Shown here piece after piece: positions 1,611 through 10,309 of a stretch of 64,000 nt of DNA. Within the stretch, counting starts at the first letter, position 1. Every line of letters starts with the position of its first letter. This DNA is from Micromonospora sp. Llam0 (lineage in GTDB: Bacteria; Actinomycetota; Actinomycetes; Mycobacteriales; Micromonosporaceae), in contig NZ_RJJY01000002.1 of the NCBI RefSeq assembly GCF_003751085.1, positions 1,426,001-1,490,000 on the forward strand, read 5' to 3'. The translations under genes were made by a program, and so were the position numbers. The notes under the pieces are model-generated. The model was given only the letters and a program-made list of their open reading frames with translations, searched no databases and was not told the DNA's origin.

Positions 1611-2640
1611 CTAGATGATCGATTCCAAGGGGTCAGTGGTCGAATGCGGTCAGGGAGCGCAGGGTCGGTTGGCCGGTGTGCCAGTTGTGCCAGATCGCGG
1701 CGGTCAGGGCGAGGACGCGTTGCAGGACCCGGACGGCGACGCCGGTGATGGTCCGGCCGCCGTGCTGTTCGAGGTCGAGTTGGCTTTTGAAGGTCTGGTT
1801 GACTGATTCGATGGTCTGCCGGACGGCGCGGAGCAGGCCCCGGCCGGGTCGTGCGGGTTCGGTGCGGTACGCGGGGCGTACGACGGTGACATCGTTGTCG
1901 TTGAGCCAGATTTCGGTGTCGCGGTCGCGGTAGCCCTTGTCCACGACCAGGATCACCCCGTCGGGGTGGTGGAACATGCCGGGTTGCAGGGTGACCAGGT
2001 CGATGAGGACTTCACGTTCGTCGGTCTTGGCGTTGGTGAGGGCGAACGCGACCGGCAGTCCGTGGACCGTGGTGACCAGGTGCAGGCGTAGTCCCCAGAA
2101 CAGCCGGGAGTGGGAGGCGCAGTAGCCGTAGCCGGCCCAGCCGGCCAGGTCGGAACGCTGCACCGTCTCGCGGGATGTGCCGCAGGGCACGGGTGTGGAG
2201 TCGGCGATCCGGATCGGGTGCCGCCACAGGTCGGTGTCGGTGGCGAGCACCGTGATGAAGTGGGCCAGTTGGGTGGTCAGCGCTCGCAGCCGTTTGTTGT
2301 AGCCGGGCTGTTTGGGCAGGTGGGGGAACAGGTGGATGATGGATTTGCGGGCGTAGCGGATCCAGCGGGTCTCGTTGTGGTAGCCGAGTAGTGCCTGCAT
2401 CACTGACACCGTGATGAGTTCGGCGTCGGTGATCCGGGCGGTGATGCCGACCGCTGGACGCCACCGGTTGAGGTGCGGGGACGCCTTCAGTTCGTCGTCG
2501 ATCCTGACGTACAGTGCGGTCGCGAGGGTGTCCAGATCGACGTGCACGTGGCCTCCATGGTTTCGCTGCCTAGGCAACGTTGATCATGGATGCCCTCGCG
2601 TCCGCTTGCTACCCCGTATCCCTTGGAATCGATCATCTAG
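1611..2640 (-). mobile_element. IS982-family insertion sequence
   Basis: The element is bounded by a perfect 21-bp inverted repeat at 1611-1631 and 2620-2640 (ctagatgatcgattccaagg plus one more g). The outer four bases are the palindrome CTAG, so they may be repeat or target. It is about 1.03 kb long with one transposase on the minus strand, typical for the family. No clear target duplication is visible. The right end coincides with the CTAG at which the IS630-family element begins. Confidence 0.85.
1633..2547 (-). CDS. IS982-family DDE transposase
   Basis: An intact transposase of about 304 aa. Catalytic-type motifs are visible: IADSTPVPCG with the first Asp, VDKGYRDRDTEIW with the second Asp, and a C-terminal Glu in QTIESVNQTFKSQLD. 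The tail AAIWHNWHTGQPTLRSL is characteristic of IS982 transposases. I chose the GTG at 2547 because GGAGG lies four bases upstream; a TTG at 2577 gives a ten-residue extension. The stop lies just inside the left inverted repeat. Confidence 0.88.
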   Translation of the reverse strand: MHVDLDTLATALYVRIDDELKASPHLNRWRPAVGITARITDAELITVSVMQALLGYHNETRWIRYARKSIIHLFPHLPKQPGYNKRLRALTTQLAHFITVLATDTDLWRHPIRIADSTPVPCGTSRETVQRSDLAGWAGYGYCASHSRLFWGLRLHLVTTVHGLPVAFALTNAKTDEREVLIDLVTLQPGMFHHPDGVILVVDKGYRDRDTEIWLNDNDVTVVRPAYRTEPARPGRGLLRAVRQTIESVNQTFKSQLDLEQHGGRTITGVAVRVLQRVLALTAAIWHNWHTGQPTLRSLTAFDH

Positions 2641-2683
2641 TGTCCCGCGCCGTTAATTCGATGAATTAATGTAGTGTCGGGTG

Positions 2684-3583
2684 ATGGCTGGTCGTGGGCG
2701 CCCGAAAACGCCGTTGATGTTGACCGATGAGGAACGGGAAACCCTGGTGCGCTGGTCACGGCGAGCGAAGTCGTCGCAGGCCCTCGCGGTGCGGTGCAGG
2801 ATCGTGCTGGGCTGCGCCGAGGATGACGGCCTGCGCCCGAACCAGGACGTCGCACAGCAGTTGGGGATCTGGCCGCAGACGGTGACCAAGTGGCGCAGGC
2901 GGTTCCTCCAACGGCGTCTCGACGGCCTGGCCGACGAGCAACGACCGGGCGCACCCCGGAAGATCACCGATGAACAGATCGAGGACGTGATCGTCAAGAC
3001 CCTCGAAGCGACACCGGCCAACGCCACGCACTGGTCGCGGGCATCGATGGCCACGCAGTCCGGGCTGTCGAAGTCGACGGTCGGCCGCGTGTGGAAGGCG
3101 TTCGGGCTCAAGCCACACCTGGTCGACACCTTCAAGCTGTCCAACGATCCGCAGTTCATCGACAAGGTCCGCGACGTGGTCGGGTTGTACCTGGACCCGC
3201 CGGAGAACGCGATCGTCCTCGCGGTCGACGAGAAGTCGCAGATCCAGGCCCTCGACCGGTCAGCCCCCGTGCTGCCGATGATGCCCGGCATGCCCGAGCG
3301 ACGCACCCACGACTACGTACGCCACGGCATCACCACGCTGTTCGCCGCCCTGGACGTGGCCACCGGCACCGTGATCGGCTCCATCCACCGCCGGCACCGC
3401 GCCGTCGAGTTCAAGAAGTTCCTCACCAAACTCGACCGTGAGGTGCCCGCCGACCTCGACGTCCACCTGATCTGCGACAACTACGGCACGCACAAACACC
3501 CCACCATCCAGCGGTGGCTGGTCACGCACCCCCGGTTCCACATGCACTTCACCCCGACCTACTCCAGCTGGCTCAACCAGGTG
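2684..3583 (+). pseudogene. IS630-family transposase, 5' exon (300 codons)
   Basis: Starts at the ATG of MAGRGRPKTPLMLTDEER (a GTG lies one codon upstream). An N-terminal helix-turn-helix region (LRPNQDVAQQLGIWPQTVTKWRRR) is followed by the DDE domain: LAVDEKSQIQALDRS carries the first Asp and LICDNYGTHKHPT the second. The frame is exactly 300 codons long and ends SSWLNQV at the group II intron 5' boundary. The third catalytic residue (Glu) is on the other side of the intron at 10077. Without splicing, translation runs 19 codons into the intron and the protein lacks its catalytic Glu. Confidence 0.9.
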
Positions 3584-4265
3584 GTGCGACACGCAAGTCG
3601 CATGAGTACAGCGACACTCATCGAAGGGGGTGCGGCGTGACGTCGCGGATGTAGTGTCCGGTCCCGTGCGCAAGGACCGTCCCCGCCTCGGCGTGCGTCG
3701 CGGGTAACCGCGGGGTGCGAAGCCCGGGGAAGGGCCCAAGGACTCCTGTTCCATCCAGGGGTTACCGGCTGGGGAAGACCGGACGGGTGAACGCAAGTGA
3801 ACCCTCGATGACGCCTCGTCATAGGCACTTCCGCTCGATGGGACGCGCCAGCGGGAGACAGGGGCCAGCCGTTGCAAGGCGGCAGGTGCCGCTCGGAGGA
3901 ATCTAGCCGGGCGGGAGCGCACCACCGTCCCCGGGGTTCAGAGGGCGCCCTACCCGGTCGTATCTGTCTCATGCGGAACGTGACAACCCCGATGGGGTCC
4001 AGACGGACAGTGATTCGGCTGGTAGGCCGCCTGTGAGGGCGGACGATGTCCCAGCGGGCGCAGGACGACCCGAGAAGCGAATGCCGGTGGCCGAAAGGCA
4101 GCGGGAAACCGGCGGCGGTGATGCTGGCTCCTCCGCCAGCGGTCGCCGGATAACCGGCCGGATAAGGGCATGTGCCCTGGCCTGAAAGGGCGCTGACGCG
4201 GGTCGGGTGAGCCTGCGGAGCTACTGCTGACCACAGCTTCGGAACCGAAGGGCAAGTTAGACACG
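3584..4265 (+). ncRNA. Group II intron 5' ribozyme region (domains I-III, start of IV)
   Basis: This 680-base stretch has no convincing gene and many short inverted repeats, starting with gtgcgacacgcaagtcgcat, the expected beginning of domain I. It ends immediately before the ATG of the intron-encoded protein at 4266, so it should hold domains I to III plus the proximal stem of domain IV. I did not assign exon-binding sequences; no convincing complement of the 5' exon end CAACCAGGTG stood out by eye. Confidence 0.75.
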
Positions 4266-5015
4266 ATGACAGCTCATGCCTTCGCTTTGGCGATGGCGGC
4301 TCTCGACGTGAACGGACCGGAGGACGATCCTGCTGGCTGGGACGCCATCGACTGGCGGACCTGCGAGGACAACGTACGGCGGCTACGGCAGCGGATCTTC
4401 GCGGCGTCGCGGGACGGGGACCTGAAGAAGGTCCGGAACTTGCAGAAGTTGATGCTCCGCTCGCGCAGCAACGCCGTGGTGGCGGTGCGGCGGGTGACGG
4501 AGCGCAATGCTGGTCGCAGGACGGCCGGGGTGGACCGGCAGGTCGTGGTGACTGGGGAGCAGAAGGCCGAACTGGCCGACTGGATCCAGAACGACGCCAA
4601 GCCGTGGACTCCCCTGCCGGTCAAGCGCGTGTATGTGCCCAAGAGCAACGGCCGCCGTCGCGGCCTCGGGATTCCCGTGATCGCTGACCGGGCGCTGCAA
4701 GCCCTGACGGTGAACGCGTTGGAGCCCGAATGGGAGGCCCGGTTCGAGCCGAAATCCTACGGCTTCCGACCGGGTCGTGGCTGCCACGACGCCATCGTGG
4801 CCATCCACACGACGTCGAGCCGCACCGACGCCAAACGGCTGTGGGTGCTCGACGCCGACCTGGCGGCGGCGTTCGACCGGCTCGACCACGACCACATTTG
4901 CCGGTCGCTGGGCTGGTTCCCCGGACGGGGACTGGTCCGGCAGTGGCTGAAAGCGGGCGTGGTCGAGGACGGCCGGTTCACCCCCACCGGGGAGGGCGCT
5001 CCCCAGGGCGGGGTG
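4266..5015 (+). pseudogene. Group II intron reverse transcriptase/maturase, N-terminal part (250 codons)
   Basis: Encodes the RT fingers and palm start: GVDRQVVVTGEQKAELADW, then VPKSNGRRRGLGIPVIADRA (RT motif around the RPLGIP position), EPKSYGFRPGRGCHDAI, LDADLAAAFDRLDHDHI and GEGAPQGG. It breaks at codon 250 (GGGGTG), where the serine-recombinase element enters; reading on gives 100 unrelated residues to a stop at 5318. Joining base 5015 to 7272 restores APQGGVISPLLMNVALHGME without loss of a codon. The intact intron-encoded protein would be 595 aa. Confidence 0.9.
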
Positions 5016-6677
5016 TTCACGCCCCCAACGCAATGGGTAACTTCGGGTTTGGTCACCCTGTGTTGCGGGTTGGTCGTGGTCTGCTTGGCTGGTGGAGCCT
5101 GGTGTGGGGGTGGGGATGCGGTGTCGGATGGTGATCTTCTCGGGTCCGACGAGGACGTCCTTGACGAGCAGTCTCAGGACGTGTTGGCGTTCTTCGACTT
5201 CGGCAGTGTTGGCCCGGTTGCGGAGCTGGGTGAGGAAGCCTTCGAGGTTGTCGGCGAGTTTGAGGTAGGCGTCGCGGTCGGCGGCCTGGGCGTTGAGGGC
5301 GTCGATCTGGACGCGTAGGCCGGTTTCGCGGGCTCGGAGGTCGGGCATTCGGGCGCGCAACTCGTCGATGGTGACGAGTTGTTCCTGGAATGCCTCGATC
5401 ATGCGGGTGATCGCCGCCGTGGCTTTCGCGAGGGCGGCCTCGAGGCGTTTGCGCTGGTGGGTGACCGGGTCGGAGGTTCGGGCCTGCTCTAGGCGGCGGT
5501 CGATCTCGCCGCGGATCATGGTCGGGTCGGTGAGCAGGGCGCCGATGTGGTCCCAGACGACCTGGTCTAGGTAGTCGGCGCGGACCGGTTTGTTGGCGCA
5601 GACCCGGCCGCCTTCGTAGCGGTAGTCATCCGATCCGAGGCATCGATAGTAGAAGATCTTCTTCTTCGCGGTCGTGGTGGTGTTGGTCCGGTAGTAGGCG
5701 TATCCGCAGCCTGAACAGGCTGCCAGGCCCTGCAGCAGGGATGGGATCTTGGTGTTGCGGGCGGCGAAGCGCTTGTTGTCGACCAGCCGCCCGGCGACCC
5801 GTTCGAAGGTCTGCTCGTCGATTATCGCCGGGACGGCGATGGTGATCTGCTCGGCGAGGGGCCGGTCGACGACCTTGACCGCGCGTGGTGTGGCCCGGCC
5901 CTCAAGCCGGGCTCTGCGGTTCAGACCTGGGGATTCGTTGATCGTCATGGTTTTGCCGAAGACCGCCTGGCCTGCGTATGCGGGGTTGCGGAGCATGGCC
6001 CAGACGACCGAGCGGTCCCAGCGGGTCTTGCCCGTGCGTGTGGGCACGCCCTGTTCGGTGAGCCACCGGGTCAGGTCGGCGATGGAGGCGCCGTCGTCGG
6101 CGTAGCGGCGGAACAACTCGGCGACCAGCACCGCCTCGCCCTCGACGATGGCGTAGGCGGCGCCGGCATGGTCGCTCTTCTTGACGTAGCGGTAGCCGAA
6201 CGGGGCGCCGCCCAGGACGTTGACAGATCCGGCCTTGGCCCGGTGCTGCTTCCCGCGGCGGCTGCGTTCGAGGATCTGCGCCTTCTCGTACTCGGCGAAC
6301 ATGCCCTGGAACTGCACCAGCAGGGCGTCCTCGGGGCTGTCCCCGCGAGGACCGTTGACGAACTCGACCCGGGTCCCGGCCCGGGAGAACTCCTCGATCA
6401 GCAGTGCCTGGTAGGCGAACTTGCGGGCCAGCCGGTCCGGCGAATAGCACAGGATCACATCCACCCCGACGCCGGCGACCAGGTCCCGCAGCCGCTCCAG
6501 GGCCGGACGGACCAGGGTCGCGCCGGAGTGTCCCTCGTCTTCGAACACCCACTCGGCGGGCACCTCAAGCCGATTCCGCTCGGCGTGCGCGCGCACCGCC
6601 GCGGTCTGCGACACGATCGTGTCGTCCTGCTTCTGCCGGGCCGAGGACACCCGGGCGTAGATCGCCGCGCTCGTCAT
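4383..6677 (-). CDS. Large serine recombinase, reading through its att site into the host intron
   Basis: Starts at ATG 6677 (MTSAAIYARVSSARQ) with GGAG about eight bases upstream. The resolvase domain (about residues 1-150) has YARVS with the presumed nucleophile Ser11, LCYSPDRLARK and ERSRRGK. The recombinase domain follows (GGAPFGYRYVKK, then WAMLRNPAYAGQ), then a zinc ribbon (ACSGCGYAYY to VCANKPVRADYLD) and a coiled coil of about 100 residues (EAALAKATAAITRMIEAFQE). This is the order expected of phiC31/TnpX-type enzymes. The element ends at base 5016, just after SYPLRWGRE (about residue 553). The frame then stays open for 211 more codons through antisense RT sequence to a stop at 4383. 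Those codons are host-derived and probably irrelevant to activity. Confidence 0.85.
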   Translation of the reverse strand: MTSAAIYARVSSARQKQDDTIVSQTAAVRAHAERNRLEVPAEWVFEDEGHSGATLVRPALERLRDLVAGVGVDVILCYSPDRLARKFAYQALLIEEFSRAGTRVEFVNGPRGDSPEDALLVQFQGMFAEYEKAQILERSRRGKQHRAKAGSVNVLGGAPFGYRYVKKSDHAGAAYAIVEGEAVLVAELFRRYADDGASIADLTRWLTEQGVPTRTGKTRWDRSVVWAMLRNPAYAGQAVFGKTMTINESPGLNRRARLEGRATPRAVKVVDRPLAEQITIAVPAIIDEQTFERVAGRLVDNKRFAARNTKIPSLLQGLAACSGCGYAYYRTNTTTTAKKKIFYYRCLGSDDYRYEGGRVCANKPVRADYLDQVVWDHIGALLTDPTMIRGEIDRRLEQARTSDPVTHQRKRLEAALAKATAAITRMIEAFQEQLVTIDELRARMPDLRARETGLRVQIDALNAQAADRDAYLKLADNLEGFLTQLRNRANTAEVEERQHVLRLLVKDVLVGPEKITIRHRIPTPTPGSTSQADHDQPATQGDQTRSYPLRWGREHPALGSALPGGGEPAVLDHARFQPLPDQSPSGEPAQRPANVVVVEPVERRRQVGVEHPQPFGVGAARRRVDGHDGVVAATTRSEAVGFRLEPGLPFGLQRVHRQGLQRPVSDHGNPEAATAAVALGHIHALDRQGSPRLGVVLDPVGQFGLLLPSHHDLPVHPGRPATSIALRHPPHRHHGVAARAEHQLLQVPDLLQVPVPRRREDPLP
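5018..5043. repeat. Left terminal inverted repeat / presumed attL of the serine-recombinase element
   Basis: A 26-bp sequence starting cacgcccccaacgcaatggg, the exact reverse complement of 7246-7271. On the minus strand it encodes the conserved recombinase C-terminal residues SYPLRWGRE, so the site is inside the recombinase gene. Confidence 0.85.
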
Positions 6678-6813
6678 CAAGGAAACTCCGTATCTCGGCG
6701 TCGCGACCAAGCCGGGCCCGCCGTTGGGGGACAAGAACCTGATAGGCGGCCGACACATCCGCCGCGCCGTGGCGGTCGAAGACGAACTCCGTCTCGACCA
6801 CCCGGTCGCTCAC
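6565..6813 (-). CDS. Small hypothetical protein overlapping the recombinase start
   Basis: An 82-codon frame beginning MSDRVVETEFVFDRHGAADV at GTG 6813. It shares a GTGA overlap with the stop of the upstream HTH/RHH gene and overlaps the recombinase by about 113 bases in another frame. The first 35 residues look like genuine coding sequence (VSAAYQVLVPQRRARL); the remainder is recombinase sequence in a different frame. It may be a short real protein whose end is unclear, or a translational coupler. Function unknown. Confidence 0.5.
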   Translation of the reverse strand: MSDRVVETEFVFDRHGAADVSAAYQVLVPQRRARLGRDAEIRSFLDDERGDLRPGVLGPAEAGRHDRVADRGGARARRAESA

Positions 6814-7163
6814 CAGCGCGGACGCTGACTGCGACCCCGTTGAAGGAACTCGGTCAACGCCGAGGCGACCACCGCGGAGATCGTGACCCCGGACCGCGCC
6901 GCGTGGGACCGAGTCCCAGCGGCCACCGACACCGGCAGCTTCACCGTGAACACCACACTCGTCTCCGGCACCGCCACCCGGCCCGCCACCGCGCCACGAT
7001 CGGCATACCGGCGCCCCTGACGCACCGACACCCCGAACCGCACGGCCAGCAACCGAGCCACCTCCGTGACCGAAACCCCGGCCTCGACAAGCTCGACAGC
7101 AGCGTTCACCCGCCCGGCGAACTCACCACCACCCACACGACGACCACCGGAAGCGACATCCAC
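6810..7163 (-). CDS. Small DNA-binding protein with HTH- and ribbon-helix-helix-like halves
   Basis: A 117-residue first gene of the three-gene element. The N-terminal half (about residues 18-60, VELVEAGVSVTEVARLLAVR then GVSVRQGRRYADR) resembles a helix-turn-helix. The second half (about 72-112, VVFTVKLPVSVAAGTRSHA then TISAVVASALTEFL) resembles a CopG-type ribbon-helix-helix with its beta strand and two helices. The assignment rests on pattern, not a search. Lying upstream of the recombinase and 80 bp from the terminal repeat, it could repress the operon or help position the recombinase at the repeat. Confidence 0.65.
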   Translation of the reverse strand: MDVASGGRRVGGGEFAGRVNAAVELVEAGVSVTEVARLLAVRFGVSVRQGRRYADRGAVAGRVAVPETSVVFTVKLPVSVAAGTRSHAARSGVTISAVVASALTEFLQRGRSQRPRW

Positions 7164-7245
7164 GTACTACCCAACGAGTCATCCACCACTTTGGATACGC
7201 CGAGGAAACTCCAACCTTCGATAACCCAGCGTCACATCGAAACAG

Positions 7246-7271
7246 AAGTTACCCATTGCGTTGGGGGCGTG
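7246..7271. repeat. Right terminal inverted repeat / presumed attR of the serine-recombinase element
   Basis: A 26-bp sequence, the exact reverse complement of 5018-5043, ending ttgggggcgtg next to host ATCAGTCCG. It lies upstream of the element's operon, so promoter and recombination site may overlap or be close. Confidence 0.85.
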
Positions 7272-8309
7272 ATCAGTCCGTTGCTCATGAACGTTGCTCT
7301 GCACGGCATGGAGGCTGCGGCCGGGGTCCGCTACCACGTCACCGGCACCCGTGCCGGGAAGACGATGGACGGTTGCCCGGTCGTGGTCCGCTACGCCGAC
7401 GATCTGATCGCCTTGTGTCACTCCCGTGAGCAGGCCGAACAGGTCAAGGCGGCACTGGCCGGATGGCTGGCGCCCAGGGGTCTGGTCTTCAACGAGGACA
7501 AGACCCGGATCACGCACCTGACCGAGGGCGTGGACTTCCTGGGGTTCAACATCCGCCGCTACCCCAACGGCAAGCTGCTGACCAAGCCGAGTAACGACGC
7601 GGTGCGACGGATCCGCAGACGCCTGTCCGTGGAGGTGCGGGCCCTGCGCGGGTCCAACGCCGACGCGATGATCGGCAAGCTCAACCCGATCATCAACGGA
7701 TGGTGCGCCTACTACCGGATCGGGGTGTCCAAACGCGTGTTCAACGCGCTGGACGCCCACGCGTGGAAACTGGTCTACAAGTGGGCCAGGTTCACCCACG
7801 CGAACAAGCCGAGACGCTGGGTGGTAGCCCGGTACTTCGGCGAGTTCAACTCGTCCCGGCGCGACAGGTGGGTATTCGGGAGCCGGGAAACCGGCTACTA
7901 CCTGCGCAAGTTCGCCTGGACTCCGATTGTCCGGCACCGGATGGTCGCAGGGACGGCATCACCCGACGACCCGACCCTGACCGACTACTGGACCCTGCGG
8001 CGTCGCCGCAGCAATCTCCCGGTGGACATCACCACGCAACGGCTCCTGCGAGCCCAGCACGGCCGGTGTCCGATCTGCCGAGACCTGCTGCTGCACGCCG
8101 ACCACGAGCCGCGAAGCCCACGTGAGTGGGAACAATGGCTCACCGCCACCCGCAGAGCGGTCCGCAGACACGCGGTCACCGTCTGGGGAGCGGGAACACC
8201 GGACGAACGCGTCGCCAACCGCCTCATACACACCCACTGCCACCGCCGGACCACCAGCAACGGCAGCCCAGCACTTCCGCCCACCCGCGAGCCTCCAGGG
8301 CTTGCTTGA
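7272..8309 (+). pseudogene. Group II intron reverse transcriptase/maturase, C-terminal part with HNH domain
   Basis: Resumes the interrupted protein at ISPLLMNVALHGME. The RT active site VVRYADDLIAL is intact, followed by the thumb/maturase X region (LNPIINGWCAYYRIGVSKRV, AWKLVYKWARFTHANK). A C-terminal HNH endonuclease follows: CPICRDLLLHADHEP, then NRLIHTHCHRR. The stop (TGA 8307-8309) overlaps the first bases of intron domain V, as is common. All residues needed for activity look present, so only the 2.26-kb insertion prevents production of the whole enzyme. Confidence 0.9.
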
Positions 8310-8342
8310 GCCGGTTGCCCGGAAAGCGGGCATGGCCGGTTC
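8308..8342 (+). ncRNA. Group II intron domain V (catalytic hairpin)
   Basis: A 35-nt hairpin beginning GAGCCGG and ending CCGGTTC, with the lower stem GAGCCGGTTG/TGGCCGGTTC, a CCCGGAAAGCGGG-type upper stem and a GAAA-like cap. This is the canonical shape of bacterial domain V. Domain VI should follow within a few bases but is displaced to 10035 by the IS1380-family insertion. Confidence 0.88.
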
Positions 8343-8346
8343 TGAG

Positions 8347-10034
8347 CCTCGATCCACCGATGAAGGTTTGACCGGCAGGACCCCGGCTACAGAAAGTGCC
8401 CTCTGAACTGGAAGGATAGGAGTTCTGACGCTTCTATCACTCGGTTCGAGAGGGCACCTCGCAGGTGAGAATACGCCAGGACGCGCCGGTGGTGCGCGCG
8501 ACGTTCGACGATCCGAATCTGGTGTCGTGTGCCGGTCTCGTTCCGGTGATGCGCCTTGCCGAGCAGGCCGGTCTGCACGACGCGGTCGCAGACCGGGTCA
8601 GGCTACCGACGGACAAGGGCGCGAACCCGGCCGGCAAGGTCGCCACGATCGTGGCCGGGATGCTCGCGGGCGCGGACAGCATCGACGACCTCGACATCGC
8701 CCGGCACGGCGGCATGCGGTCGCTGTTCGGCGGCGTGTACGCGCCGTCGACACTCGGGTCGTTCCTGCGTACGTTCACCCACGGGCACGTACGGCAGTTA
8801 CAGGCCGCCGCCCGCGACACCCTGATCGGTCTGACCGGCCGGGCACCGATCCTGACCGGCGCCGACACCCTGTGCTTCGTGGACATCGACTCCATGCTGC
8901 GGCGGGTGTACGGCAAGCAGAAGCAGGGCATCGGGTTCGGCCACGCCAAGGTCGGCGGCTACAACGTCTACCTGCGCGGCTACAACCCCCTGGTCGCGAC
9001 GCTGTCCACCCCGCTGTCCGCGCCGGTGATCGCCGCCACGAGGCTGCGGTCGGGTAACGCCGGCTCGGCCCGGGGCGCCGCCACCATGATCGCCGAGGCC
9101 ATCACGACCGCCCGGGCATGCGGCGCTTCGGGGGAGATCATGGTGCGAGCGGACTCGGCGTTCTACGCCAAGACGGTGATCAGCGGCTGCCGGCGTCGTG
9201 GCGTGCGGTTCTCGGTCACCTGCCGCATCGACCCGAAGATCCGCGCCGCGTGCGACGGCATCGCCGCCGACCAGTGGGTCGACATCACCTATCCGCAGGC
9301 CGTCTGGGACGAAGACGCCGGCCGGTGGATCTCCGACGCGCAGATCGCCGAAACCACGTACACCGCGTTCGCCGGCACCCGACACGAGGCGACCGCCCGG
9401 CTGATCGTGCGCCGCGTCCGCCGCGACGACCCGCAACAGATCCCCGGCCAGGACGAACTCCTGCCGACCTACCGGTACCACGCCGTGTTCACCGACAGCC
9501 CGTACACCCTCGTCCAGGCCGAAGCCCAGCACCGGCAACACGCGATCATCGAGCAGGTCAACGCCGACCTGATCGCCGGGCCCCTCGCCCACCTGCCCTC
9601 CGGACACTTCAGCGCCAACGACGCCTGGCTGACCTGCGCCGCGATCACGCACAACCTCACCCGCGCCGCCGGACACCTCGCCGCGGGCACCTGGTCGACC
9701 GCCAGACCCGCCACCATCCGGACCCGGATCATCACCGTCGCGGCCCGCCTCGCCCACCGGGCCCGCACCATCCACCTACACCTGCCCGAGTACTGGCCCT
9801 GGCAGGCGGCGTTCGACAACCTGTTCACCGCCGTCCAGCCGGCACCCGGCTGACCACACCCCACCAGCCGAAACCAGGCGGCCCGACCACAGGCCACAAT
9901 CCCCGTTCCACCTCGAACCCTCACCCTCGGAGCAAGCCGATCACGTGATCGGCGACTCCCTCACGCCCGCCCCACCACCCCAATACAGAAATGTTCAACC
10001 AACATTTAGCGGCAACCGCGTCGGTGGATCGAGG
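8347..10034 (+). mobile_element. IS1380-family insertion sequence in the domain V-VI linker
   Basis: The ends are the inverted repeat cctcgatccaccga (8347-8360) and tcggtggatcgagg (10021-10034). They are flanked by a 5-bp direct repeat CTGAG at 8342-8346 and 10035-10039. Deleting the element plus one copy gives GGTTCTGAGGGGGCCCC, the usual join of domain V to VI. Length 1,688 bp, one transposase, as expected for the family. A hairpin with arms gtgccctctgaac and gttcgagagggcac precedes the transposase start. Confidence 0.92.
8465..9853 (+). CDS. IS1380-family DDE transposase
   Basis: A 462-aa intact frame from GTG 8465. Recognisable segments are LVSCAGLVPVMRLAEQAGL at the N-terminus, LCFVDIDSMLRRVYGKQKQG with the first Asp, IMVRADSAFYAKTVI with the second, and a long C-terminal section with HRQHAIIEQVNADL (probable Glu) and WLTCAAITHNLTRAAG. 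These fit the IS1380/IS942 group. It is the only layer of the nest besides IS982 that seems complete and still able to make its own transposase. Confidence 0.88.
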   Translation: MRIRQDAPVVRATFDDPNLVSCAGLVPVMRLAEQAGLHDAVADRVRLPTDKGANPAGKVATIVAGMLAGADSIDDLDIARHGGMRSLFGGVYAPSTLGSFLRTFTHGHVRQLQAAARDTLIGLTGRAPILTGADTLCFVDIDSMLRRVYGKQKQGIGFGHAKVGGYNVYLRGYNPLVATLSTPLSAPVIAATRLRSGNAGSARGAATMIAEAITTARACGASGEIMVRADSAFYAKTVISGCRRRGVRFSVTCRIDPKIRAACDGIAADQWVDITYPQAVWDEDAGRWISDAQIAETTYTAFAGTRHEATARLIVRRVRRDDPQQIPGQDELLPTYRYHAVFTDSPYTLVQAEAQHRQHAIIEQVNADLIAGPLAHLPSGHFSANDAWLTCAAITHNLTRAAGHLAAGTWSTARPATIRTRIITVAARLAHRARTIHLHLPEYWPWQAAFDNLFTAVQPAPG

Positions 10035-10076
10035 CTGAGGGGGCCCCGGCGCAGCAATGCGCCGGGGCTACCCGAC
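10035..10076 (+). ncRNA. Group II intron domain VI and 3' splice site
   Basis: Begins with the second copy of CTGAG and forms a hairpin from ccccggcgca and tgcgccgggg, ending ctacccgac at the 3' splice site. The AGCAATGC-containing loop and final AC agree with domain VI of related bacterial introns. It is separated from domain V by the 1.69-kb IS1380-family element. Confidence 0.8.
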
Positions 10077-10277
10077 GAACGCTGGTTCGGGCTACTCACC
10101 GACCAACGCCTACGCCGCGGTACCCACCGCACCCTGCGCAGCCTGGAAAACGACATCCGCACCTGGGTCCAGCAATGGAACGCCAACCCGAAACCGTTCA
10201 CCTGGACCAAGACCGCCGACGAGATCCTCGAACGACTCGCCTCATATCTTCAACGAATTCCCGGCGCGGGACACTAG
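10077..10277 (+). pseudogene. IS630-family transposase, 3' exon (66 codons plus stop)
   Basis: Begins with the third catalytic residue in ERWFGLLTDQRLRRGTHRT and ends LASYLQRIPGAGH with TAG, which lies in the terminal CTAG. Together with 2684-3583 it forms a complete 366-aa transposase, so the insertion of the intron cost no sequence. Confidence 0.9.
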
Positions 10278-10309
10278 ACGAGTAGGTCCGAAGTCGGGTC
10301 AGTCAGTTT

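What the first reader, a model, noticed from the sequence alone, without database searches (positions are those of the whole stretch)
2637..10277. Four mobile elements nested inside one another, with every junction readable
An IS630-family element (CTAG ends) contains a group II intron (3584-10076). The intron contains a serine-recombinase element (5016-7271) in its RT gene and an IS1380-family element (8347-10034) between domains V and VI. Each removal restores a frame or a known RNA join: NQV-ERW, GGV-ISP, and GGTTCTGAG-GGGGCC. A nest this clean gives a relative time order and a natural test of which layers are still alive.
Basis: partly seen in the sequence, partly recalled or inferred. Interest (0 to 1): 0.85.

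Follow-up and report, generated by a model that had tools for sequence, protein, structure and literature searches.

The report
Jumping gene that targets intron genes

Summary
The nest is real at the stated coordinates, but three levels deep, not four: IS630 > group II intron > two side-by-side inserts, a serine-recombinase (SR) element and an IS1380 copy. The same genome holds uninterrupted intermediates collinear with the window pieces.

Two layers are not random. Near-identical copies of the intron (99.5-100%) sit in divergent IS630-like genes at the same codons, SWLNxV|E or close. The SR element is the main result: all 3 copies in this genome split different intron reverse transcriptase (RT) genes at PQGG(V/I)|..|SPLL, in both orientations. 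Of 34 outside relatives with both ends located (of 53), 27 split an RT gene at that column.

The elements are about 2.25 kb: a CopG-type protein, a small ORF and a large serine recombinase, between inverted arms around a variable 2-nt core. In 38 of 41 tested the recombinase has no stop codon inside the element. Some distant relatives split IS5 or IS110 transposase genes at fixed columns. I read it as a site-specific parasite of mobile elements. Listings of nine paper searches (open library) showed no description.

The parts
2637..3583 (+). IS630-like element, 5' exon (transposase up to SWLNQV)
   Evidence: NCBIfam NF033545 IS630 E 4.7e-69; Pfam DDE_3; terminal repeat read
10077..10277 (+). 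IS630-like element, 3' exon (starts ERWFG), with its right terminal repeat
   Evidence: continues from the 5' exon as in uninterrupted relative L011; no profile match on its own
3584..10076 (+). group II intron including its two inserts (uninterrupted copies are 2544 nt)
   Evidence: L011-L014 copies 99.5-100% identical; RF00029 in L011-L013
4266..5015 (+). intron RT gene, N-terminal half (ends APQGGV)
   Evidence: TIGR04416 columns 3-185 E 6e-49; RVT_N, RVT_1 1-124
7272..8306 (+). intron RT gene, C-terminal half (starts ISPLLMN), with maturase domain
   Evidence: TIGR04416 columns 186-350 E 1.8e-36; RVT_1 125-205, GIIM
5018..7271 (-). serine-recombinase (SR) element between its inverted arms; core TT (5016-5017) on the left, AT (7272-7273) on the right
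   Evidence: boundary printed two bases off and corrected by hand; arms occur only in the 3 SR copies of this genome
5018..6677 (-). large serine recombinase gene; no stop codon inside the element, the frame runs on into host DNA
   Evidence: Pfam Resolvase, Recombinase, Zn_ribbon_recom; stop 635 nt past the arm
6565..6813 (-). small ORF overlapping the recombinase start; its first part (FDR...AY..LVPxRR) is conserved, function unknown
   Evidence: ORF; motif read in 10 of 13 elements tried
6810..7163 (-). CopG-type (ribbon-helix-helix) small protein
   Evidence: ORF; no Pfam or NCBIfam hit itself; 62% identical over 104 residues to an annotated CopG protein of a related element; relatives match PF01402
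5018..5044 (.). left inverted arm of the SR element
7245..7271 (.). right inverted arm of the SR element
8347..10034 (+). IS1380-family element, 1688 bp, target duplication CTGAG, between intron domains V and VI
   Evidence: NCBIfam NF033539 E 4.5e-96; duplication and copies

Best explanation
The insert in the RT gene is one member of a family of compact site-specific elements that prey on group II introns. Step 1 (inferred from the enzyme type and anatomy): the recombinase excises the element as a circle, joining its two inverted arms around a 2-nt core to form a nearly palindromic attP. Step 2 (shown by junctions): the element enters DNA that encodes PQGG(V/I)..SPLL of a group II intron RT, splitting the gene between the two motifs, in either orientation. 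Step 3 (shown for the window by its empty-site relatives, inferred for others): the dinucleotide brought in need not equal the target's, so one junction keeps the target core and the other the imported one, a 2-nt footprint that I take to come from an earlier site. Because the target is DNA for a widely conserved protein motif, RTs of many kinds are landing pads. The host RT copy is split and presumably disabled. The recombinase frame ends inside host DNA. In this window the element hit an intron that had itself homed into the SWLNQV|E codons of an IS630 transposase, and IS1380, before or after, hit a CTnAG site at the domain V/VI junction.
For: Own genome: 3 of 3 SR copies split RT genes at the same codons. 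The N-halves of those RTs are 45-62% identical to each other while the SR pieces are 99.8-100% identical. Of 53 loci, 34 had both arms located; 26 of 34 matched a local RT HMM (10 frames) on at least one flank, 19 of 34 on both; N-halves end at HMM 267-271, C-halves start at 271-272 or 304-310. L081 is a 27th, by TIGR04416 starting at column 186. These 34 are not all independent (L049/L084 and L063/L073 are related pairs). Plasmid records with at least 49% SR identity: 11 of 12 have RT homology on a flank. 21 of 30 RT rows have N-halves of 90 residues or more; these form 19 groups at 90% identity, median pairwise identity 39%. Host-coded tails of database recombinases: 58 of 103 match RT-site DNA in the predicted frame and place at p<=0.01 against 200 shuffles, 71 of 103 at 0.05 (a few come from records also in the site library). 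DNA-level recognition: 5 of 7 insertions without an RT match lie in the best 0.5% of local positions by a matrix from 24 RT sites. Core: five uninterrupted RT relatives in this genome have AT at the site, the window has TT left and AT right. 18 of 31 junction pairs share the core, 13 differ, 10 of these at the first base only (five boundaries corrected by hand).
Against: 7 of 34 genome loci gave no RT profile match: L047 (methyltransferase), L074 (kinase), L078 (beside an ISNCY transposase), L072, L080, L086, L091. L080 and L086 look RT-like by eye only. L063 and L073 have RT on one side only, with non-RT DNA on the other. L106 sits in a DUF4158 gene, which I recall as Tn3-type transposase. 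L072 and L074 do not resemble the target. No circle, excision or integration has been seen. Serine recombinases usually need matching core dinucleotides (recalled), yet 13 of 31 pairs differ. 45 of 103 tails were not significant at 0.01. 19 of 53 loci could not be judged.
Confidence: 0.88

Rival explanations
1. Hitchhiking: the SR element entered one ancestral intron RT once and then spread with intron mobility, so the shared position is inheritance, not targeting.
For: Two Kibdelosporangium loci share a 3739-bp stretch (99.9%) holding the SR element and RT pieces in different surroundings, so co-movement can happen.
Against: Near-identical SR copies sit in RTs whose N-halves are only 45-62% alike in one genome, and both orientations occur: 10 same, 21 opposite. 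5 of 7 non-RT sites resemble the target in DNA.
Confidence: 0.06
2. Chance nesting of ordinary mobile elements in a transposon-rich genome.
For: The genome is full of them: 36 RT pieces, 14 IS1380 copies of 1688 bp. For the IS1380 layer alone this reading holds: its copies share only a CTnAG-like flank.
Against: Same codons in 3 of 3 own SR copies and 27 of 34 outside loci; intron at the same codons in all five other copies examined.
Confidence: 0.02
3. The element is a cut-and-paste transposon with a 2-bp target duplication rather than a recombinase-type integrating element; the arms are transposon ends.
For: Inverted ends, and the same 2 nt on both sides in 18 of 31 pairs (corrected).
Against: The only large gene is a large serine recombinase. 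The two sides differ in 13 of 31 pairs, and in the window the empty-site base is known, which gap-filling duplication does not explain.
Confidence: 0.08

Closest known systems
Large serine recombinase elements (phage integrases, Ccr, TnpX/TndX; Durrant et al. 2022, PMC10083194, passages)
   Same: Resolvase + Recombinase + zinc-ribbon architecture; weak NCBIfam similarity to CcrB, CcrC and XisF, far below cut-offs; a 2-nt core between unlike sites
   Different: About 2.25 kb without cargo; near-palindromic arms; variable core; no stop inside the element; target is RT motif DNA. A term search of PMC10083194 main text found 0 occurrences of group II intron and reverse transcriptase
RmInt1 group II intron in IS630-family ISRm2011-2 (PMC4496777, passages)
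   Same: A group II intron whose natural target lies in an IS630-family insertion sequence
   Different: RmInt1's protein lacks the C-terminal endonuclease domain (start of abstract of PMC8914252), while this intron's RT has an HNH-like C-terminus by eye (no profile test); several divergent IS630-like hosts in one genome; here the intron is itself split by other elements
IS607 family
   Same: Small element moved by a serine enzyme (recalled)
   Different: IS607 profile match is weak and below cut-off (30.7 vs 110 bits)
IS630, IS1380 and group II intron families
   Same: The other three layers are ordinary members by profile
   Different: Only their arrangement is unusual

Membership tests
Large serine recombinase | N-terminal resolvase catalytic domain, Recombinase domain, zinc ribbon | tested here: met
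   PF00239, PF07508, PF13408 above cut-offs
Large serine recombinase | crossover at a 2-nt core with different attP and attB | tested here: inconclusive
   31 junction pairs read: 18 share the core, 13 do not (corrected); no reaction shown
Large serine recombinase | excision through a circle with a directionality factor | not testable with these tools
   the CopG-type protein and the small ORF are only candidates
RT-targeting SR family (proposed here) | splits a group II intron RT between PQGG and SPLL | tested here: met
   window; 27 of 34 outside loci
RT-targeting SR family (proposed here) | recombinase frame has no stop inside the element | tested here: met
   38 of 41 tested including the window: 36 stop in host DNA, 2 run off the contig; 3 have a stop inside the gene
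Group II intron | 5' GTGCG, domain V/VI, RT-maturase | tested here: met
   uninterrupted copies: RF00029, 618-codon RT frame, boundaries
Group II intron | splicing and retrohoming | not testable with these tools
   99.5-100% introns in 67-75% hosts imply recent movement
IS630 | IS630 transposase profile and TA-centred target | tested here: met
   NF033545 E 4.7e-69 for the 5' exon; CTAG at both ends; TA rule recalled
IS1380 | IS1380 transposase profile, inverted ends, target duplication | tested here: met
   NF033539; 16 copies read, 12 with identical 5-nt flanks
IS607 | IS607 transposase profile over cut-off | tested here: not met
   30.7 bits against 110

The most novel reading that the evidence does not exclude
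Large serine recombinases have given rise to a cross-phylum superfamily of compact hyperparasites. Each lineage has come to recognise the DNA of highly conserved codons of another mobile element's enzyme: intron RT PQGG..SPLL in the main lineage, the IS5 transposase at profile columns 220-223 in perhaps two lineages, and the IS110 transposase at column 331 in another. They move from one such gene to the next, carry the previous victim's two core bases as a coupling sequence, and let each victim supply the stop codon of their recombinase.
Probability: 0.55. Interest if true: 0.87.

Novelty: new variant of a known kind. Interest (0 to 1): 0.75.

Why it matters
It suggests a predictable food chain among bacterial mobile elements: intron on IS630, recombinase element on intron. 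It makes testable how a DNA enzyme can use a widely conserved protein motif as landing site across phyla. Such elements could act as natural brakes on group II introns, which bears on what limits intron spread. They also offer recombinases with a defined target and unusual core rules, and they may explain split 'reverse transcriptase' and oddly tailed 'recombinase' annotations.

Tried and rejected
Hitchhiking, chance and ordinary target duplication were weighed as stated under rivals. A phage origin was considered: in the phage collection 13 records match, all under 60% identity, 5 Wolbachia and 5 Bacillus among them. Passages of the WO paper (PMC9203015) place WO recombinase integration elsewhere, so I did not pursue it.

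A search of Hyphomicrobiales genomes with a sister recombinase was not possible, so the 14 distant plasmid relatives (32.8-40.6% identity) are a small, plasmid-only set. Of these 14: 3 have RT on both flanks (L104, L113, L116; arms not located), 4 split an IS5 gene (L103, L107, L115, L121; L107's left piece had no profile match, L115's right piece was not scanned), 2 an IS110 gene (L105, L117; left piece by profile, right piece by eye), 1 lies just upstream of an IS110-like start (L119, E 0.0049), and 4 are unassigned (L102, L118, L120, L122).

The tree of 55 recombinases has three very long branches (L085, L080, L078; broken genes) and a midpoint root. I use it only to see that RT-splitting is spread across it and that IS5/IS110 splitting falls in a supported 14-row clade, which also holds a phage row and two RT-splitting rows (L104, L116). 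19 of the 53 loci were dropped before counting: no arms found (15) or spurious arms (4). The stop-codon test covered 41 elements; six with both arms (L058, L073, L078, L080, L081, L085) were left out, and first miscounted L047 and L057 as stopping inside, corrected. Structure prediction was not run.

Literature: nine answered searches bear on the question (one search found 0). I saw listings of at most 25 papers each, out of up to 252, and passages of PMC4496777, PMC9203015, PMC10083194 and PMC6053426. None of what I saw describes such an element. The library is open-access only.
Full report
What is there. The window (G000:C2:1426001-1490000, an 8.9-Mb genome in two contigs) carries an IS630-like element at 2637-10277 split by a group II intron at 3584-10076. 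The intron carries a serine-recombinase (SR) element in its RT gene and an IS1380 copy between domains V and VI. Profiles agree: IS630, group_II_RT_mat split at columns 185|186, and IS1380; Resolvase/Recombinase/Zn_ribbon and RVT_1 split at 124|125. The two inner elements are side by side, so the nest has three levels.

Test by natural intermediates. Instead of mending the sequence I compared window pieces with other copies in the same genome. In L011 the pieces 2639-5019, 7263-8346 and 10035-10280 abut. Four uninterrupted 2544-nt introns (L011-L014) match the window intron pieces at 99.5-100%, while the IS630-like DNA around them is 67-75% identical over aligned stretches of more than 100 bp. 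The five other copies examined (L011-L015) and the window read SWLNMV|E, SWMNQI|E or SWLNQV|E (L013 and L014 have the same exons, translated by eye), and a congener copy reads SWINQV|E. I recall the E as the catalytic glutamate of IS630 transposases. So the intron has moved recently and, in every copy read, sits at the same codons of IS630-like genes; RmInt1's natural target likewise lies in an IS630-family element (PMC4496777, passages). L015 is a further intermediate: a 92% intron copy with an 86% IS1380 relative at another place.

The SR element. A 26-nt arm sequence occurs six times in the genome, two for each of three SR copies, and nowhere else with up to 3 mismatches. All three copies split RT genes at PQGG(V/I)|..|SPLL. 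The RT N-halves are 45-62% alike, the SR pieces 99.8-100%; one of the three copies (L010) has the same orientation as its RT, the other two the opposite one. A scan of one genome per species, limited to two peptide patterns, gave 53 relatives in Actinobacteria, Acidobacteria, Proteobacteria, Nitrospirae and Chloroflexi. For 34 of 53 both arms were found. An HMM made from 10 RT frames of this genome matched at least one flank in 26 of 34 and both in 19 of 34; N-halves end at HMM 267-271 and C-halves start at 271-272 or 304-310. L081 adds a 27th. The 34 include related pairs (L049/L084, L063/L073). In 12 plasmid records with at least 49% recombinase identity, 11 have RT homology on a flank; where annotated, neighbours are called CopG protein, recombinase, reverse transcriptase or group II intron maturase.

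A second check. In 38 of 41 elements tested the recombinase frame has no stop inside the element: 36 stop in host DNA, 2 run off the contig; 3 (L066, L105, L107) have a stop inside the gene. Database recombinases should therefore carry host-coded tails. Of 120 listed homologues 118 gave a tail. Of 103 tails of at least 11 residues, 58 match RT-site DNA read in the predicted frame (32 same orientation, 26 opposite) at p<=0.01 against shuffles, where about 1 is expected. 45 did not. The set is not wholly independent, since a few of these proteins come from records or close relatives also used in the 34-site library.

How it recognises and joins. A target matrix from 24 RT sites was applied to 7 insertions without an RT match. 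Five lie within the best 0.5% of local positions (windows at or above: L086 1 of 18632, L106 10 of 6632, L091 35 of 18632, L078 15 of 3946, L047 41 of 8310), while L072 (943 of 6372) and L074 (876 of 3290) do not. Recognition therefore seems to be of DNA, with RT genes as the richest source. Around the arms lies a 2-nt core. In the window it is TT left and AT right; five uninterrupted relatives have AT, so TT came in with the element. Of 31 junction pairs counted as RT (including L080 by eye) 18 share the core and 13 differ, 10 of these only at the first base (boundaries of window, L009, L010, L058 and L067 corrected by hand afterwards). I read this as a coupling dinucleotide carried from an earlier site. 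That the reaction runs through a circle is inference from the enzyme type.

Element content. Besides the recombinase there is a CopG-type small protein (62% to an annotated one; PF01402 in two relatives; no profile hit for the window's own) and a conserved small ORF with FDR...AY..LVPxRR seen in 10 of 13 elements tried, not in the three IS5/IS110-splitting relatives tried. Either could be a directionality factor; this is untested.

Wider family. Fourteen relatives at 32.8-40.6% identity were read. Three have RT on both flanks. L103 splits the IS5 profile NF033580 at 220|222 and L121 at 221|223; L107's right piece starts at 222 and L115's left piece ends at 222. The left pieces of L105 and L117 both end at column 331 of the IS110 profile NF033542. 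L121 lies apart from L103 in the tree, so the same IS5 position may have been reached twice. Four of the 14 are unassigned.

Which layers look alive. IS1380: 14 copies of 1688 bp plus two relatives at 86%, with identical 5-nt flanks in 12 of 16. Intron: four uninterrupted copies with a 618-codon open RT frame. SR: three copies, two of them interrupted by other insertions. The window's IS630 is broken, and one search shows no close sister of its exons. Time order: IS630, intron, then SR and IS1380 in unknown order.

Verdict. The recombinase kind is known; the target, the stop-less gene and the variable core make it a new variant. I saw no description in the listings of nine paper searches of an open-access library.

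Noticed in passing
L009 3319-9688 (G000:C1:1740318-1746687): A deeper nest in the same genome: intron RT > SR element > second IS1380-like element (duplication TCGG) > another group II intron.
   Followed up: partly
L019 about 5358-7781 (G000:C2:1554357-1556780): A group II intron sits inside another intron at the end of its domain V, a twintron-like arrangement within a few bases of the place that IS1380 uses in the window; inner ends set by eye.
   Followed up: partly
window 8348-8462 minus: The left end of IS1380 matches Rfam RF02469 Ms_IGR-7, listed as an actinobacterial sRNA (67 bits); that family may be an IS1380 end. Two papers name Ms_IGR-7 (listing only).
   Followed up: no
L049 and L084, 4094-7832: Two Kibdelosporangium loci share 3739 bp (99.9%) holding an SR element and RT pieces in different surroundings, suggesting movement or duplication as a unit.
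   Followed up: partly
L063 and L073: Two acidobacterial loci share one flank next to the SR element, but one has the RT N-half and the other the C-half on the far side, as if the element had rearranged the gene.
   Followed up: no
L023, L029, L031 (+ copy), L034: Four of 16 IS1380 copies have flanks that differ only in the middle base of CTnAG, perhaps from recombination between copies.
   Followed up: no
window 1633-2636: A DDE transposase gene abuts the IS630 left end at CTAG; 641 bp (window 2000-2640) recur at 99.8% in L010, beside another SR locus.
   Followed up: no
P0035: A database recombinase of 789 residues whose precomputed Pfam list also has RVT_1 and GIIM, perhaps a natural recombinase-RT read-through.
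   Followed up: no
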